Below, piece by piece: positions 7,741-13,123 of a stretch of DNA of 64,000 nt. The DNA is from Cytophagales bacterium (GTDB taxonomy: Bacteria > Bacteroidota > Bacteroidia > Cytophagales > Bernardetiaceae): contig JAAFJX010000002.1 in assembly GCA_013299045.1 (NCBI GenBank), positions 1 to 64,000 of the forward strand. Reading direction: 5' to 3'. Within the stretch, counting starts at the first letter, position 1. Every line of letters starts with the position of its first letter. Under the pieces are notes generated by a model. The model was not told the DNA's origin. It saw only the letters and a program-made list of their open reading frames with translations, and searched no databases. The translations under genes and the position numbers were made by a program.

Positions 7741-8053
7741 ATTTTACTGCACTTAAGGGCTATAGTGAGGTAAAGATTATCTTCTTTTGAAATTTGTGTG
7801 TGGCTGAACACCCACATAAAATTTCAATCTAAGCCCGCAATTAACAATATTTTTGAAACATATTACAAAAATGCAGATATTTTTTTTGGGTTTCCGAATC
7901 AAAAAAAACATTCTACACATGAGAGAGAAACAAACCTATGTAATGTTTTGAGGTTCTGTGAGCGTTATTTTTATCAGAGAGGTCAAACTTTACTACTCAC
8001 TGACAAGCGCATACGATTCGTTTGCTCGCTGTTTTGGATAGGCTTCATGTAGA

Positions 8054-8180
8054 TAGTCGTCCCTTAAAAAGGCTATAAAATTTAGGGACGGCCATCTATA
8101 ACAGGAGCACAGAATAAGTGGGAGTGCTCTCTTTTTTCAGTGCCTTTGTACCACCACTAACGAGCTTTAAGGGACGACTA
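8054..8180. mobile_element. Short inverted-repeat element (MITE-like), 127 bp
   Basis: The ends are perfect 15-bp inverted repeats: TAGTCGTCCCTTAAA at 8054-8068 and its reverse complement at 8166-8180. Both ends carry a terminal TA, as expected for elements that duplicate a TA target (IS630/mariner type). A second internal inverted stretch, TTTAGGGACGGCCATC at about 8090, resembles a degenerate copy of the same end. It has no coding capacity. The same terminal sequence starts the long repeats at 17439 and 60365. The rest of the 7741-8374 spacer shows nothing I can name. Confidence 0.75.
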
Positions 8181-8374
8181 GCGTATAAAATTAGTATTCT
8201 TTTTTAGCCTTTTTGTCAGCAAAATTGCAGTGCTTTTGAAATTTTTGCCTAATTTGCGGTGGTCAATTTATCAGTATAATTGTTTATTCTTAAACGTATA
8301 GCTTCTTTGTTTTCAAAAAAGAGACAAAAAAAGTTAATCGTTTGTAGTGTTCGTGCTCTGAGTCTCTTTATTTC

Positions 8375-11300
8375 ATGTCTATAGCCCGCATCAATCAATA
8401 TTATCGTGAACTTGAAGATATTTATACTTTTTCAGGTGCAACCAATGAAACTTCTATCCGAAGGGTTACGGCTAATCTTATCTCGGATTATGCCAAAGAA
8501 AAACATTTGATGTTGGTTGATGAAATAAAACTGCCTCATCTTTCCAAAGTACCCGATGGAGCGTTGCAAGATACGTTCAAATTCAATTATGGGTATTGGG
8601 AGGCAAAAGACCTCAAAGACGACCTCGAAAAGGAAATCCAAAAGAAAATCAATATCGGCTATCCTACCGAAAATTTATTGATAGAAGACTCAAAACAAGC
8701 CGTTTTGATACGTGGCGACCTCCGCGAATACTGCGATATGACTGACGCAAAGGCGTTAGATAAATTTTTGACTAAGTTTGTGAGCTATATCAGGCAAGAA
8801 ACGCTTGATTTTAGGGAAGCTCTTGAGCAATTTGCGAAAGATACACCCAAAATCGTACAAGTGCTGGAAGATATGATAGCAGAGCAAGTCAAAACAAATC
8901 CTGCTTTTGAGCAAAAACGCCAAGCATTTTTTGACCTTTGTCAATCGGTTATCAATCCTACCATAACGTTTGCCAACATTGATGAAATGCTGATACAGCA
9001 TATCTTGACGGAAGAAATTTTCTTCAGTATCATGGACGACAGAATGTTCCACGAAGACAATAACATCTCGCGTACCCTTACGGATATAGAAAAAACTTTT
9101 TTTATCAAAGATACCAAAAGGCAAGTGTTGGCAAAATTAGAACCTTACTACAAGGCTGTAAAATTGCGGGCTTCAGGCGTACATACGCATGAAGATAAAC
9201 AGGATTTTTTGAAAGCCATTTATGAAAGTTTTTACAAGGCATATAATCCTGCAAGTGCAGATAGGCTCGGCATAGTCTATACGCCTTCAGAAGTGGTGCG
9301 CTTTATGATAGAAAGTACCGAATATTTGCTCGAAAAATACTTTAACAAAACGCTCTCCAGCACAGGCGTAGAGATACTCGACCCTGCTACAGGTACAGGC
9401 ACATTCATCACGGATTTGATAAAGCACTTGCCTGCCCAAGCCCTCGAATACAAATACAAAAACGAGATACATGCCAATGAAGTGGCTATCTTGCCCTACT
9501 ACATAGCGAACCTGAATATAGAATACATCTACAAACAAAAAATGAAAGGCGTGTATGCAGAGTTTACGAACCTTTGTTTTGTAGATACCCTCGACAATAC
9601 TGACGCGCTCAAGTATGCAGGCAAGCAAGGCGATATGTTTGGCGCACTCGCAGAAAATGCACAACGCATCAAAGCCCAAAATGACCGCAAAATATCCGTT
9701 ATCATTGGCAATCCGCCTTATAATGCAAGACAAGCTAACTTTAATGACCAAAATGCGAATAGAGTTTATAAAGAAATAGACAAACAAATCAAAACTACTT
9801 TTGTAAAACAAGGCAATGCACAAAATCAAAATGTACTCTATGATATGTATGTGCGTTTTTATCGTTGGGCAATGAATAGAATAGATGCTAAAGATGGTGG
9901 CATTGTAGCTTTTATTACCAATCGTAGTTTTATTGACTCGCGTACTTTTGATGGTTTTCGTAAATGTGCGCAAGAGGATTTTCAAGAAATCTATGTCGTG
10001 GATTTGATGGGAGATGTGCGCCAAAACAATACTGCCGTACAAGGAGGCAATATATTCAATATCATGACAGGCGTAGCCATAGCGTTTTTTATTAAAATAA
10101 AAGACAGTGATAAAAAGAAAGCTCGCATACAGTATTACAACGTAGGCGAGGGTTTAAGTGCTAAAGATAAATTAAATATACTCAAAGATAACAAAATTAA
10201 AGACCTTGATTTTAAACGCATCTTGCCTGATGCTAAACATAACTGGATAAACCTTACAGACAATGATTGGGATACACTTATGCCCCTTTGTAGCAAAGAA
10301 GTAAAAGCAGGCAAGGGTAACGATAAGGCTATTTTTGAATTATTTTCTTTAGGTATAGCAACCCATAGAGATAATTGGAATTATGACTTTAATAAAGATA
10401 ATTTAAAAAATAAAGTAGAGTATTTTATAGATATTTACACTAATACAATGAAAGATAAAAACTTTAAAAACAAAGATACAATTGCTTGGGACGCTGATTT
10501 AGAAAAATATGCATTAAGAAAAATAGATAAAAAATTTGAAGAAAGCAAAATATTAAAAGCAATGTTTAGACCTTTTGTTACAAAATATCTATATTTTGAT
10601 AATCATTTAAATAGTAGATTATATCAATGGGAAAATATTTATAATATTAAAGGAAACGTTGTAATTGCTGTTAATAAAGAAGGAAGCAATAAACCTTTTC
10701 ATTGTTTAGTATCTAATAAGATTTTAGATTTACATACTACAGGCGATACAAATTGTCTTCCTTTATATCGTTATGAAGCAGGCAAGGCAATAGAAAACAT
10801 CACGGATTGGGCGTTGGGGGTTTTCCGCGATAGATACAGGGAGAGAGGAGAGAAGGGAGGATGGAGAGGGGAGAAAGGGGATAGCCCTCTCCTCTCTCCT
10901 CTCTCCTCCCTTCTTACCAAAGAAGACATTTTTCATTATGTGTATGCCGTTCTGCACGCACCCGCTTATCGTGAGAAGTATGCCCAAAACCTGAAAAGAG
11001 ATTTTCCACGCATACCGTTGTATGATGATTTTTGGAAATACGCACAGGCAGGCAAGGAACTGATGGAGTTGCATCTTTGGGAGGGGGGAGATGGGAGTAT
11101 GGAGAAGGGAGAAGATGGTATGGAAGCTAAACAAAATATCATATATGATTTACAAAGATTTACAAGTTTGGCAAATGTCTATGAATTTGGTAACGGAAGT
11201 GTACAAAATAACGCAGTCATTTCCAAAGGAGGAGTTGTATGGCTTGACGAGTCAAGTGCGGCGTGCAGTGGTGTCTATACCATCAAATATAGCCGAAGGT

Positions 11301-11956
11301 CATCAGCGGAACAGCACCCGACAATTTTTGCAATTCCTATCAATAGCGCGAGGTTCATTGGGAGAGGTAGAAACACAGCTTTTGATAGCGGAACGGCTGA
11401 AGTATTTATCGAGGGAAATGATGCTGGAGTTTCAAAAACAGATAAATTCAGTAGGGAATTTGCTGGGAGCATTGATGAAGGCTTTAGAGAAAAAACTGGA
11501 GTAGAAAGTAAGGAGGTGGGAGATGTGAGAGGGGAGAATGCTATTTTTCTCCCCTCTCTCTCCTCCCTTCTCTCCTCTCTGAAAGTACATACCTTGTCTG
11601 TAGAAAGCGTCTTGCCCAAGCGCAAAAAATCGGATATGTTCGAGGCAGAACAAGCCGAACTCATCAAAAATTATGTACCTGAAGTGAAACTGCGTGTAAA
11701 AGAGGGCGATATAGAAATAGACAGCCTAACCACTATCACAGGTGTTCCTGCGGTGGCGTTTGAATATAAGCTCGGCAATAGAAGTGCTATAGAGTGGGTA
11801 CTAGACCAGTACAAACCATATAAGTCCAATGATAAGACGATTCAAGAGAACTTCAATGCGTATAAGTTTGCAGACTATAAGCAGGAAGTTATAGATTTGC
11901 TCTTGCGGGTTATTTATGTGAGCGTGAAAACTATGAAAGTGGTGAGAAGTTTTTAA
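8375..11956 (+). CDS. Single-chain restriction-modification enzyme (PD-(D/E)xK nuclease plus N6-adenine methylase, type ISP-like C terminus)
   Basis: A 1193-aa enzyme predicted to methylate adenine at its target and cut unmodified DNA. The N-terminal nuclease-like motif is PDG (Asp61) with YWEAK (Glu76, Lys78). The methylase core has motif I DPATGTGTF near residue 336 and motif IV GNPPY near 446. The C terminus resembles the LlaBIII-type specificity domain (TKEDIFHYVYAVLH, FPRIPLYDDFWKYA, LPKRKKSDMF). There is no helicase domain, so it is nearer type IIG than true type ISP. Two insertions sit inside the C-terminal half: a purine/pyrimidine hairpin (residues about 822-847) and a ~500-bp segment (about 904-1070) encoding another protein in a different frame. 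Both keep the frame open. The neighbourhood has no separate R or S gene. Whether the enzyme still works is open. Confidence 0.8.
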   Translation: MSIARINQYYRELEDIYTFSGATNETSIRRVTANLISDYAKEKHLMLVDEIKLPHLSKVPDGALQDTFKFNYGYWEAKDLKDDLEKEIQKKINIGYPTENLLIEDSKQAVLIRGDLREYCDMTDAKALDKFLTKFVSYIRQETLDFREALEQFAKDTPKIVQVLEDMIAEQVKTNPAFEQKRQAFFDLCQSVINPTITFANIDEMLIQHILTEEIFFSIMDDRMFHEDNNISRTLTDIEKTFFIKDTKRQVLAKLEPYYKAVKLRASGVHTHEDKQDFLKAIYESFYKAYNPASADRLGIVYTPSEVVRFMIESTEYLLEKYFNKTLSSTGVEILDPATGTGTFITDLIKHLPAQALEYKYKNEIHANEVAILPYYIANLNIEYIYKQKMKGVYAEFTNLCFVDTLDNTDALKYAGKQGDMFGALAENAQRIKAQNDRKISVIIGNPPYNARQANFNDQNANRVYKEIDKQIKTTFVKQGNAQNQNVLYDMYVRFYRWAMNRIDAKDGGIVAFITNRSFIDSRTFDGFRKCAQEDFQEIYVVDLMGDVRQNNTAVQGGNIFNIMTGVAIAFFIKIKDSDKKKARIQYYNVGEGLSAKDKLNILKDNKIKDLDFKRILPDAKHNWINLTDNDWDTLMPLCSKEVKAGKGNDKAIFELFSLGIATHRDNWNYDFNKDNLKNKVEYFIDIYTNTMKDKNFKNKDTIAWDADLEKYALRKIDKKFEESKILKAMFRPFVTKYLYFDNHLNSRLYQWENIYNIKGNVVIAVNKEGSNKPFHCLVSNKILDLHTTGDTNCLPLYRYEAGKAIENITDWALGVFRDRYRERGEKGGWRGEKGDSPLLSPLSSLLTKEDIFHYVYAVLHAPAYREKYAQNLKRDFPRIPLYDDFWKYAQAGKELMELHLWEGGDGSMEKGEDGMEAKQNIIYDLQRFTSLANVYEFGNGSVQNNAVISKGGVVWLDESSAACSGVYTIKYSRRSSAEQHPTIFAIPINSARFIGRGRNTAFDSGTAEVFIEGNDAGVSKTDKFSREFAGSIDEGFREKTGVESKEVGDVRGENAIFLPSLSSLLSSLKVHTLSVESVLPKRKKSDMFEAEQAELIKNYVPEVKLRVKEGDIEIDSLTTITGVPAVAFEYKLGNRSAIEWVLDQYKPYKSNDKTIQENFNAYKFADYKQEVIDLLLRVIYVSVKTMKVVRSF
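10839..10915. repeat. In-frame purine/pyrimidine inverted repeat inside the restriction gene
   Basis: A purine-only arm (10839-10880, rich in GGAGAG) is followed by ATAG and a pyrimidine-only arm (10885-10915, CCCTCTCCTCTCTCC then TCCCTTCTT). Translated, it adds a Arg/Gly/Glu/Lys stretch followed by SPLLSPLSSLL between two conserved blocks, NITDWALGVFRDRY and TKEDIFHYVYA. Twenty bases at 10842-10861 recur exactly, inverted, at 11561-11580. Confidence 0.7.
11079..11581 (+). mobile_element. Inserted cassette carrying a four-helix-bundle protein gene
   Basis: The segment begins with a purine-rich stretch (11079-11118) and ends with a pyrimidine-rich stretch (11549-11581). A perfect 12-bp inverted repeat (GAGAGGGGAGAA, 11527-11538, and its complement at 11547-11558) lies just after the inner gene stop. 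The restriction-gene frame through this stretch has no recognisable conservation, while conserved enzyme sequence resumes at about 11600. This layout, a stem enclosing an IVP gene, resembles the intervening sequences known from 23S rRNA genes. Borders are approximate. Confidence 0.6.
11145..11504 (+). CDS. Four-helix-bundle protein (23S rRNA intervening-sequence protein family)
   Basis: A 119-aa protein encoded entirely inside the restriction gene, in the +1 frame relative to it. It is a canonical member of the S23/IVP family. The N terminus reads MIYKDLQVWQMSMNLV, followed by ITQSFPKEELYGLTSQVRR, then AVVSIPSNIAEG, and FLSIARGSLGEVETQLLIAE. No stop, frameshift or motif loss is visible. The ATG at 11145 gives the normal family start; a longer frame from 11091 runs into purine-rich repeat. 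The family forms pentameric helical bundles of unclear function, classically encoded within 23S rRNA intervening sequences, and often as free-standing genes in Bacteroidota. Finding it nested in another gene is unusual. Confidence 0.85.
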   Translation: MIYKDLQVWQMSMNLVTEVYKITQSFPKEELYGLTSQVRRAVVSIPSNIAEGHQRNSTRQFLQFLSIARGSLGEVETQLLIAERLKYLSREMMLEFQKQINSVGNLLGALMKALEKKLE

Positions 11957-12382
11957 ATACCATCGCCTTCTTGGAATGTTTACGTTAAATGTTTTCAGTT
12001 CTTTGAAAGGTCATATTGATTGCCAAGAAGCGCAAGAAAACACTTTTAGGAACAACGCCTCAATAGAAAAGTAGGATAGCTTGGACAAGAGTCCTGCTTT
12101 AAATGAGCCTACCTTGTCAGGGTTTCTTTTGCTCCATGAAGGTTTTGGGGTAGTGTATGGGGTAGAAAAAAATAGTCCAACGAATTTAGGATTTTTGTGC
12201 CGCTTTTAAGCCCTTTTATAGCAGATGATAACTATTTTTTACCTTCATGTCTGCAAATTCAGACGTTTACATTTAATATTTGGCAAAAGAATTGCGTTAA
12301 TAAAAAGATATGCCTTTATTTGTCTCCTGTAGTCTTTATAAATTTTGTAGAACAGGCTTTTCATTTCGTAAACCTTATCCTG
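11957..12382. other. Intergenic, no gene seen
   Basis: This 426-bp stretch between the restriction gene and the SiaB-like gene has an open frame into the latter (from 12197), but its translation lacks conservation features. I see no terminator, repeat or RNA gene. Confidence 0.5.
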
Positions 12383-12952
12383 ATGAGCACACCATTCAAA
12401 CTTCTGGGCTTCCAAAAACAGTTGCAAGGTGGTAATATTTCTATGGCTTTTAGGGGGGGAATGTCGCAAGAAATTCTCTCGCTTATGGGCTGGAGTTTGC
12501 GTAGAGCCGAAGAGAACGTTGTGGTTAGCAGGCGTTTATTTGGTATGATTATAGAGCTTTCGCAAAATATATTGCACTATTCCGCCGAACGAGAATACTC
12601 TGAGCACGACCAGAAAGAAATTGGCTGTGGTATCATTACTGTTTCGAAGCAAGAAGGCCAGTACATTATTAATGCGGGTAATTACGTAACGTTGGATAAA
12701 ATAGAACGCATTAAGTCCCGCTGCGACCACATCAATAGCCTAAGCCAGGAAGAACTCAAAGCCTATTACAAAGCACAAAGGCGCTTGCCACACGCTGATG
12801 GCGGAACGGGCGCAAATATTGGGTTTATTGATATGGTAAGAAAATCAGGCAATAAAGTCGCCTTTAACTTTTATGAATCTCCCGAAAGGCCAGGGTGTAG
12901 CTTCTTTGTGCTGACAGTTACAGTTAATGTCAATTTAGAAATGGGCGAGTAA
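12383..12952 (+). CDS. SiaB-family protein kinase (GHKL ATPase-like, DUF6272)
   Basis: A 189-aa soluble protein resembling SiaB/RsbW-type kinases that phosphorylate an anti-sigma-antagonist-like partner. Seen in the sequence: an N-box-like helix, IIELSQNILHYS, an ATP-lid-like region HADGGTGANIGFIDMVRKSG, and a final beta strand SFFVLTVTVNV. I start at the ATG at 12383 (MSTPFKLLGFQKQLQGG). The 62 upstream codons are compositionally unlike protein and contain no signal. In other Bacteroidota such genes sit near SiaC-like (DUF1987) partners. None is visible here. Confidence 0.7.
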   Translation: MSTPFKLLGFQKQLQGGNISMAFRGGMSQEILSLMGWSLRRAEENVVVSRRLFGMIIELSQNILHYSAEREYSEHDQKEIGCGIITVSKQEGQYIINAGNYVTLDKIERIKSRCDHINSLSQEELKAYYKAQRRLPHADGGTGANIGFIDMVRKSGNKVAFNFYESPERPGCSFFVLTVTVNVNLEMGE

Positions 12953-13123
12953 GACGCTTTGCCTCAAGAGTTCTAAATCATAAAAAAACATAAAATTAGC
13001 AGACTAAAATGCACGATTTTTGTGCAAATTCCGTTTAAAAGCTAAGGCGGAAGTTCTACTTGTTGTCCTGGCAGTTAATCCAATCATTTTGTATTGCTCA
13101 CCATTATTGAAAAATTCATTAAG

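What the first reader, a model, noticed from the sequence alone, without database searches (positions are those of the whole stretch)
11079..11581. A complete four-helix-bundle (IVP-type) gene inserted inside a restriction enzyme gene, with both frames open
The 119-codon gene at 11145-11504 is a canonical S23/IVP family member in the +1 frame of the 1193-codon restriction gene. The outer frame runs through about 165 codons of unrecognisable sequence and then resumes conserved enzyme sequence (LPKRKKSDMF). The insert is bounded by purine- and pyrimidine-rich arms, and a perfect 12-bp hairpin sits right after the inner stop. IVP genes are known in stems inside 23S rRNA; here the same cassette type seems to have entered a protein gene without breaking it. 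This hints that IVP cassettes are mobile beyond rRNA and are selected for frame-neutral insertion, or that the RNA stem is processed.
Basis: partly seen in the sequence, partly recalled or inferred. Interest (0 to 1): 0.78.

Follow-up and report, generated by a model that had tools for sequence, protein, structure and literature searches.

The report
Hidden gene nested in restriction enzymes
A small gene of the kind known from inserts in ribosomal RNA sits, flanked by repeat arms, inside a bacterial DNA-methylating defence gene in a shifted reading frame without breaking it, and the same arrangement was found again in several other kinds of DNA-methyltransferase gene.

Summary
A canonical S23/IVP gene (PF05635, 143 bits) lies at 11145-11504 in the +1 frame of a Type ISP restriction-methylase ORF, 8375-11956. 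Alignment with 20 homologues fixes the insert at 11078-11581 (504 bp, 168 codons); 20 of 20 lack it. It recurs: searches found 17 nested loci, window included, plus one remnant. All 17 hosts are DNA methyltransferases (Type ISP, BREX PglX, type III, type IIG, DrmMI, Hma), and all 18 loci use the same frame offset. A tree suggests repeated nesting, with weak support. In one pair the IVP protein evolves at dN/dS 0.07 while the outer peptide changes freely but stays stop-free. This offset is the only same-strand frame in which all 128 IVP proteins tested could be stop-free by synonymous change alone. Inverted arms of 7-8-nt repeats flank many IVP genes. Best reading: a hairpin cassette giving two proteins from one DNA. 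Translation of both frames, mobility, RNA processing and the reason for methyltransferases are untested.

The parts
8375..11956 (+). Outer gene: Type ISP restriction-modification enzyme, 1193 codons, carrying two in-frame inserts
   Evidence: Pfam N6_Mtase, ISP_coupler, Type_ISP_C; homologues align over 1-901 and from about 1049-1111 to 1189-1193
11078..11581 (+). Whole insert (cassette), 504 bp, in phase with the outer gene
   Evidence: Absent in 20 of 20 aligned homologues; length and border codons checked
11078..11115 (+). Left purine-rich repeat arm
   Evidence: Repeat family D1 and inverted pair I6; period 7
11145..11504 (+). Nested IVP/S23 four-helix-bundle gene, 119 codons, +1 frame of the outer gene
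   Evidence: PF05635 143 bits, TIGR02436, PDB 2gsc relative E 4.5e-29
11513..11572 (+). Hairpin after the inner stop, with a perfect 12-bp core 11527-11538 / 11547-11558
   Evidence: Inverted pair I3; core checked
11546..11580 (+). Right pyrimidine arm, 94% complementary to the left part of the upstream hairpin (10842-10876)
   Evidence: Inverted pair I1
10838..10915 (+). Second in-frame hairpin of the same repeat, without an IVP gene, in a loop that is also lengthened in 11 of 20 homologues
   Evidence: Purine/pyrimidine runs, inverted repeats, loop lengths

Best explanation
It is an IVP (S23) hairpin cassette, of the kind that interrupts 23S rRNA genes, lodged in frame in a loop of a DNA methyltransferase of a restriction system. 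One stretch of DNA codes for two proteins: the outer frame is read straight through, adding 168 residues that behave as a polar, disordered linker; the inner +1 frame gives the four-helix-bundle protein, probably from the same mRNA by its own start. The state persists in this register because it is the one same-strand frame in which every stop in the overlapping frame can be removed without changing the IVP protein (a third-base T before AA, AG or GA can always become C). Shown: the anatomy, absence from homologues, recurrence in methyltransferase genes, the fixed offset, conservation of the IVP protein in the pairs tested. Inferred: that both frames are translated, that the enzyme works with the insert, that the cassette is mobile.
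For: Borders and 20 of 20 homologues without the insert; both sides conserved in one frame; 17 nested loci plus one remnant, all 18 in the same offset, the 17 in DNA methyltransferase genes; among 134 non-redundant IVP genes, long spanning ORFs in this offset 10, in the other four frames 0; stop-free frame expected in 0.08 of 70 genes; IVP dN/dS 0.07 and outer frame 0 synonymous, 28 non-synonymous changes in L200/L202; 128 of 128 IVP proteins can be stop-free in this offset by synonymous change, 74 of 128 in the other sense frame; AlphaFold pLDDT under 50 for outer residues 904-1059 and 826-844; ATG within six codons upstream in 10 of 11 nested genes.
Against: No RNA or protein data. Host genes are not all intact: L087's ORF starts at PglX profile position 259, L163 loses similarity to L232 after residue 1010, four loci are cut by contig ends, and L199 is a remnant. 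Inverted arms beat all 40 shuffles in only 6 of the 11 nested loci tested. The outer-frame profile used for the search favours this offset. In L203 and L233 the IVP gene itself is damaged. The low hydrophobic content of the outer peptide is largely explained by codon make-up (mean shift against within-gene shuffles -0.019, others -0.007), and low pLDDT partly reflects that no aligned relative covers the insert.
Confidence: 0.72

Rival explanations
1. The cassette acts at RNA level as in rRNA: RNase III cuts the stem in the mRNA, so the enzyme is made as two fragments or is switched off, and the open outer frame is incidental.
For: The two arms pair in the predicted fold (z -3.3, 1 of 100 shuffles as good); RNase III excises the Coxiella rRNA element (PMC4990558, passages).
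Against: If the RNA were cut, stops in the outer frame would not matter, yet none occurs in 17 of 17 nested loci found by a profile search that reads through stops; in L203 and L233 the outer frame stays open although the IVP gene is damaged.
Confidence: 0.12
2. The stretch is a genuine domain of these methyltransferases and the IVP frame is spurious.
For: One PADLOC PglX profile includes the stretch: 9 of 10 outer-frame peptides match PDLC02522 at about 291-405 (E 2.6e-11 to 0.0095).
Against: The IVP frame matches PF05635 at 143 bits and evolves at dN/dS 0.07; 10 of 10 outer-frame peptides match no Pfam family; the stretch is absent in 20 of 20 Type ISP homologues.
Confidence: 0.02
3. Neutral bystander: cassettes insert anywhere, and methyltransferases only tolerate them best; neither protein product matters and the cases are transient.
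For: Hairpins without IVP sit in the same kind of loop (11 of 20 Type ISP homologues have a lengthened loop); IVP decay in L203 and L233; most IVP genes found are not nested.
Against: IVP protein conserved while nested (dN/dS 0.07; 0.16-0.44 in the four other pairs that could be computed); six DrmMI-type hosts share the site and their IVPs form one weakly supported group, which points to long retention.
Confidence: 0.14

Closest known systems
23S rRNA intervening sequences (IVS) with an S23/IVP ORF
   Same: Same protein family; ORF enclosed by arms that can pair; heptameric repeats in the arms (Coxiella IVS: PMC4990558, passages read; arms here)
   Different: Host is a protein gene and its frame is kept open through the cassette; in Coxiella the S23 ORF is said to be decaying and probably not expressed, whereas here it is conserved in the pairs tested
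Rickettsia palindromic elements (RPE)
   Same: Palindromic elements inserted in frame in protein genes (review PMC10969869, passages read)
   Different: RPEs are about 150 bp, lie in unrelated metabolic genes and add their own peptide by fusion; here a separate conserved gene lies in another frame and the hosts found are DNA methyltransferases
Avd of diversity-generating retroelements
   Same: Related fold: bAvd 35 bits and DivGenRetAVD 38 bits
   Different: Both scores lie under the curated cut-offs; a reverse transcriptase nearby was not searched for
Overlapping restriction-modification genes
   Same: Two products from overlapping frames in a restriction locus (PMC2997769, seen in a search listing only)
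   Different: There two genes of one system overlap; here an unrelated gene lies wholly inside the enzyme gene

Membership tests
S23/IVP protein family (PF05635) | Profile match over the curated cut-off along the whole domain | tested here: met
   143 bits against a cut-off of 33.8, profile 1-105 of 106
rRNA IVS element | ORF enclosed by inverted arms with short tandem repeats | tested here: met
   Arms and period 7 in the window; over all loci 81 of 127 beat all shuffles
rRNA IVS element | Located in an rRNA gene | tested here: not met
   It lies in a Type ISP enzyme gene
rRNA IVS element | Excised from RNA by RNase III | not testable with these tools
   Only a predicted fold
Rickettsia palindromic element | Element's peptide fused in the frame of the host gene, without a separate gene | tested here: not met
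   The conserved gene is in the +1 frame; the outer peptide matches no Pfam family
Intein or group I/II intron | Splicing domain or intron RNA in the insert | tested here: not met
   Inner frame matches only 23S_rRNA_IVP and bAvd in Pfam, outer peptide nothing; Rfam search of 8000-13000 gave only miRNA families below their gathering scores
Type ISP restriction-modification enzyme (host) | Methylase, coupler and ISP C-terminal domain in one ORF | tested here: met
Type ISP restriction-modification enzyme (host) | Enzyme activity | not testable with these tools
   No assay

The most novel reading that the evidence does not exclude
A set of IVP cassettes lives by nesting in DNA methyltransferase genes of defence systems: it enters or survives only there, keeps its own protein intact in the one tolerable overlapping frame, rides along with these often-transferred genes, and may tune them, its protein acting on the shared mRNA or enzyme, or its 7-nt repeats shifting the enzyme's frame.
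Probability: 0.3. Interest if true: 0.9.

Novelty: new variant of a known kind. Interest (0 to 1): 0.8.

Why it matters
It would show a small, selfish-looking gene surviving inside anti-phage enzymes by double coding, explain extra stretches in some annotated PglX and type IIG enzymes, and give the puzzling S23/IVP family a tractable setting outside rRNA. It also offers repeated natural cases of overlapping genes in which the choice of frame has a simple genetic-code reason.

Tried and rejected
Literature: ten searches of the held open-licence library listed no paper that I could recognise as reporting an IVP gene nested in a methyltransferase gene; several of those searches returned nothing and most subscription papers are not held. 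Rfam: only miRNA families below their gathering scores, on the hairpins; taken as chance. Plasmids: no match to the L161 outer-frame peptide; 34 plasmid records hold an IVP-like protein match, flanks not examined. A Psychrobacter plasmid methylase was fetched as an insert-free type IIG relative and not analysed further. Candidates fetched and found not nested: L165-L170, L205-L208, L234 and L235. G021 (L040) has a stop-free frame of this offset (120 codons) but lies after the stop of a Type ISP gene; counted as not nested. One search skipped minus-strand loci and was superseded; the score column printed is wrong (always 0) and is not used. The third-base count (T:C 0:76 in nested genes, 1022:671 in others) is circular for the nested set and is not used as a test. 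Lower synonymous divergence of the IVP than of its flanks in L200/L202 (0.265 against 0.80 and 0.60) fits double coding but also recent sharing. Hit lists were cut off, so weaker nested cases may be unlisted. One search tried 21 Type ISP loci; L019 gave no ORF and was dropped.
Full report
What is there. The outer ORF 8375-11956 (1193 codons) is a Type ISP restriction-modification enzyme: N6_Mtase, ISP_coupler and Type_ISP_C, the last in two stretches. In its +1 frame lies a 119-codon gene, 11145-11504, matching PF05635 (23S_rRNA_IVP) at 143 bits and TIGR02436; solved relatives are PDB 2gsc and 2rld. It is the only PF05635 match in the 4.06-Mb assembly. Alignment with 20 homologues from other genomes puts the insert at outer residues 902-1069, that is 11078-11581, 504 bp, in phase; 20 of 20 lack it, with 30-91 residues between two conserved anchors (window 901 and 1111) against 209 in the window. 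The nearest homologue (L010) reads MALHL directly on to VVVKHLPLESMLPKRKK.

Arms. The insert starts with a purine-rich repeat and ends in a hairpin and a pyrimidine arm; the two ends pair in a predicted RNA fold (z -3.3; 1 of 100 shuffles as good). A second hairpin of the same repeat, without IVP, sits in frame at 10838-10915. In the 20 homologues that second loop has 16-19 residues in 9 and 23-78 in 11; most of the long ones fold into a hairpin of another sequence, judged by eye without a shuffle control. It looks like a recurrent landing place. Of 127 IVP loci with enough flank, inverted arms beat all 40 dinucleotide shuffles in 81; of 118 arms scored for period, 32 had a clear one: 7 in 23, 8 in 8, 10 in 1. 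Among the 11 nested loci in that test 6 beat all shuffles and 5 (L198, L190, L087, L133, L132) did not. The named carriers of IVP relatives come from several phyla. The Coxiella rRNA element also has tandem heptamers upstream of its S23 ORF (PMC4990558, passages). So the cassette here resembles the rRNA cassette in another kind of host gene.

Recurrence. Checking 47 named loci with IVP relatives for ORFs spanning them gave one more nested case, Epilithonimonas tenax L087, an IVP in a PglX-like ORF in the same offset (PglX profiles). I then built profiles of what the outer frame makes of IVP genes (3 rows; 7 rows); they hold nothing of the host enzymes. Searches: 395 genomes of the phylum (hit list cut), 241 of the own order, 98 of the order of G498, 197 and then 381 of the class of G283 (overlapping). 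Hits without stops in long frames: G498, G298, G283, G615; G650, G708, G478, G699 twice, G244; G747, G745, G893, G753, G861, G877; none new. With the window and L087 these are 18 loci. G650 (L199) proved to be an IVP followed only by the C-terminal piece of the L162-type enzyme, which leaves 17 nested and one remnant. Four of the 17 are cut by a contig end (L161, L229, L231, L233). Stop-free hits with short frames (97-157 codons in G405, G366, G602, G384, G030, G811, and G021 with 120) were not counted as nested; G405, G366, G602, G384, G811 and G021 were looked at, G030 was not.

Hosts. All 17 are DNA methyltransferase genes: Type ISP (window; L228), PglX (L087; L161), type III methylase (L162), DrmMI/type IIG (L163, L201, L204, L230, L231, L232), type IIG (L164, L200, L202, L203, L233), Hma/DUF1156 methylase (L229) (L201, L204, L230 and L231 by 38-39% identity to L232; L231 itself matches no Pfam family). 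Not all hosts are intact: L087's ORF begins at profile position 259 of PglX and L163 loses similarity to L232 after residue 1010. In 12 of 17 the cassette lies between the TP motif and motif I: nine bracketed by both motifs, L161 by eye, and L231 and L233 seen from one side because the contig ends; motif names are recalled. In L228 the cassette sits in the loop that holds the window's second hairpin, so the two Type ISP cases are separate insertions. As a baseline, 12 of these genomes hold 83 N6_Mtase and 73 N6_N4_Mtase matches (some genes split into rows) in about 38 Mb, under one per cent of the sequence if each gene is about 2 kb (my estimate). On a 128-row IVP tree the 16 nested rows need 9 changes (shuffled mean 15.2, 0 of 500 as low), but many forks are weak and well-supported branches alone force only 1. 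Nine of ten outer-frame peptides match one PADLOC model only, PDLC02522 PglX, at E 2.6e-11 to 0.0095, which suggests that nested cassettes entered that published profile unnoticed.

Why this frame. All 18 loci use one offset. In 134 non-redundant IVP genes held, long spanning ORFs occur in this offset in 10 and in the other four frames in 0. That set was partly chosen with the outer-frame profile, which favours this offset; among loci fetched by IVP protein alone (30 and 47) the nested ones are the window and L087. Of 128 IVP proteins, 128 can be stop-free in this offset by synonymous change alone and 74 in the other sense frame; the codon-aligned antisense frame also allows 128, so the lack of antisense cases needs another reason, perhaps transcription with the host gene. 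The outer peptide of nested genes has 19% order-promoting residues against 35% for the same frame in other IVP genes; matched for GC3 (0.45-0.65) the difference shrinks to 0.216 (7 genes) against 0.277 (20 genes), and within-gene shuffles explain most of it. AlphaFold gives pLDDT under 50 for outer residues 904-1059 and 826-844, the two inserts, between better-modelled flanks (mean pLDDT 66).

Selection. Between L200 and L202 the IVP frame has 23 synonymous and 6 non-synonymous differences (dN/dS 0.07) and the outer frame 0 and 28; the host's C-flank has dN/dS 0.08. Of six more distant pairs, four give 0.16-0.44 for the IVP frame and two are saturated. So the IVP protein is the conserved product and the outer peptide need only stay open. 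In L203 the IVP has an internal stop and a deletion, and L233 shows the same deletion, while the outer frame stays open. Ten of 11 nested genes examined have an ATG within six codons upstream of the matched start; several follow a GGAG-like stretch by eye.

What is not known. No RNA or protein data. Mobility is inferred from distribution and arms; no target-site duplication was looked for. Why methyltransferases is open: tolerant loops, frequent transfer of these genes, or targeting.

Noticed in passing
L069-L074, L080, L082 (Type ISP homologues): The enzyme gene is split at about residue 575-580 by 0.7 to 2.6 kb in these relatives, with the two halves in separate open frames; the content of the gap was not examined.
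   Followed up: no
L163, outer residues about 1052-1156: A DUF559 endonuclease-like domain (PF04480, 125 bits) lies in the same outer ORF as the nested IVP, between repeat peptides, as if another arm-flanked gene had been inserted in frame.
   Followed up: no
L069:4345-5060 (G021): An IVP gene with a stop-free frame of the same offset lies just after the stop codon of a split Type ISP gene; it may once have been nested.
   Followed up: partly
PADLOC model PDLC02522, positions about 291-405: A published PglX profile appears to contain the outer-frame peptide of a nested IVP gene.
   Followed up: partly
L230, L161, L162 outer ORFs: Repeat peptides such as SSQYSVGSSQ, SVVSGQWSVAS-like and HSPFA runs occur at several loops of these methyltransferases, like in-frame hairpins without an IVP gene.
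   Followed up: no
L169:530421-region of G230:C3 (L058): A free IVP cassette with strong inverted arms appears to sit tightly between two neighbouring genes, judged by eye from the flanks.
   Followed up: no
window 10838-10915 and the same loop in 11 of 20 homologues: The loop after NITDWAL in Type ISP enzymes is lengthened in 11 of 20 homologues, mostly by hairpins of unrelated sequence, and holds a whole IVP cassette in L228.
   Followed up: partly
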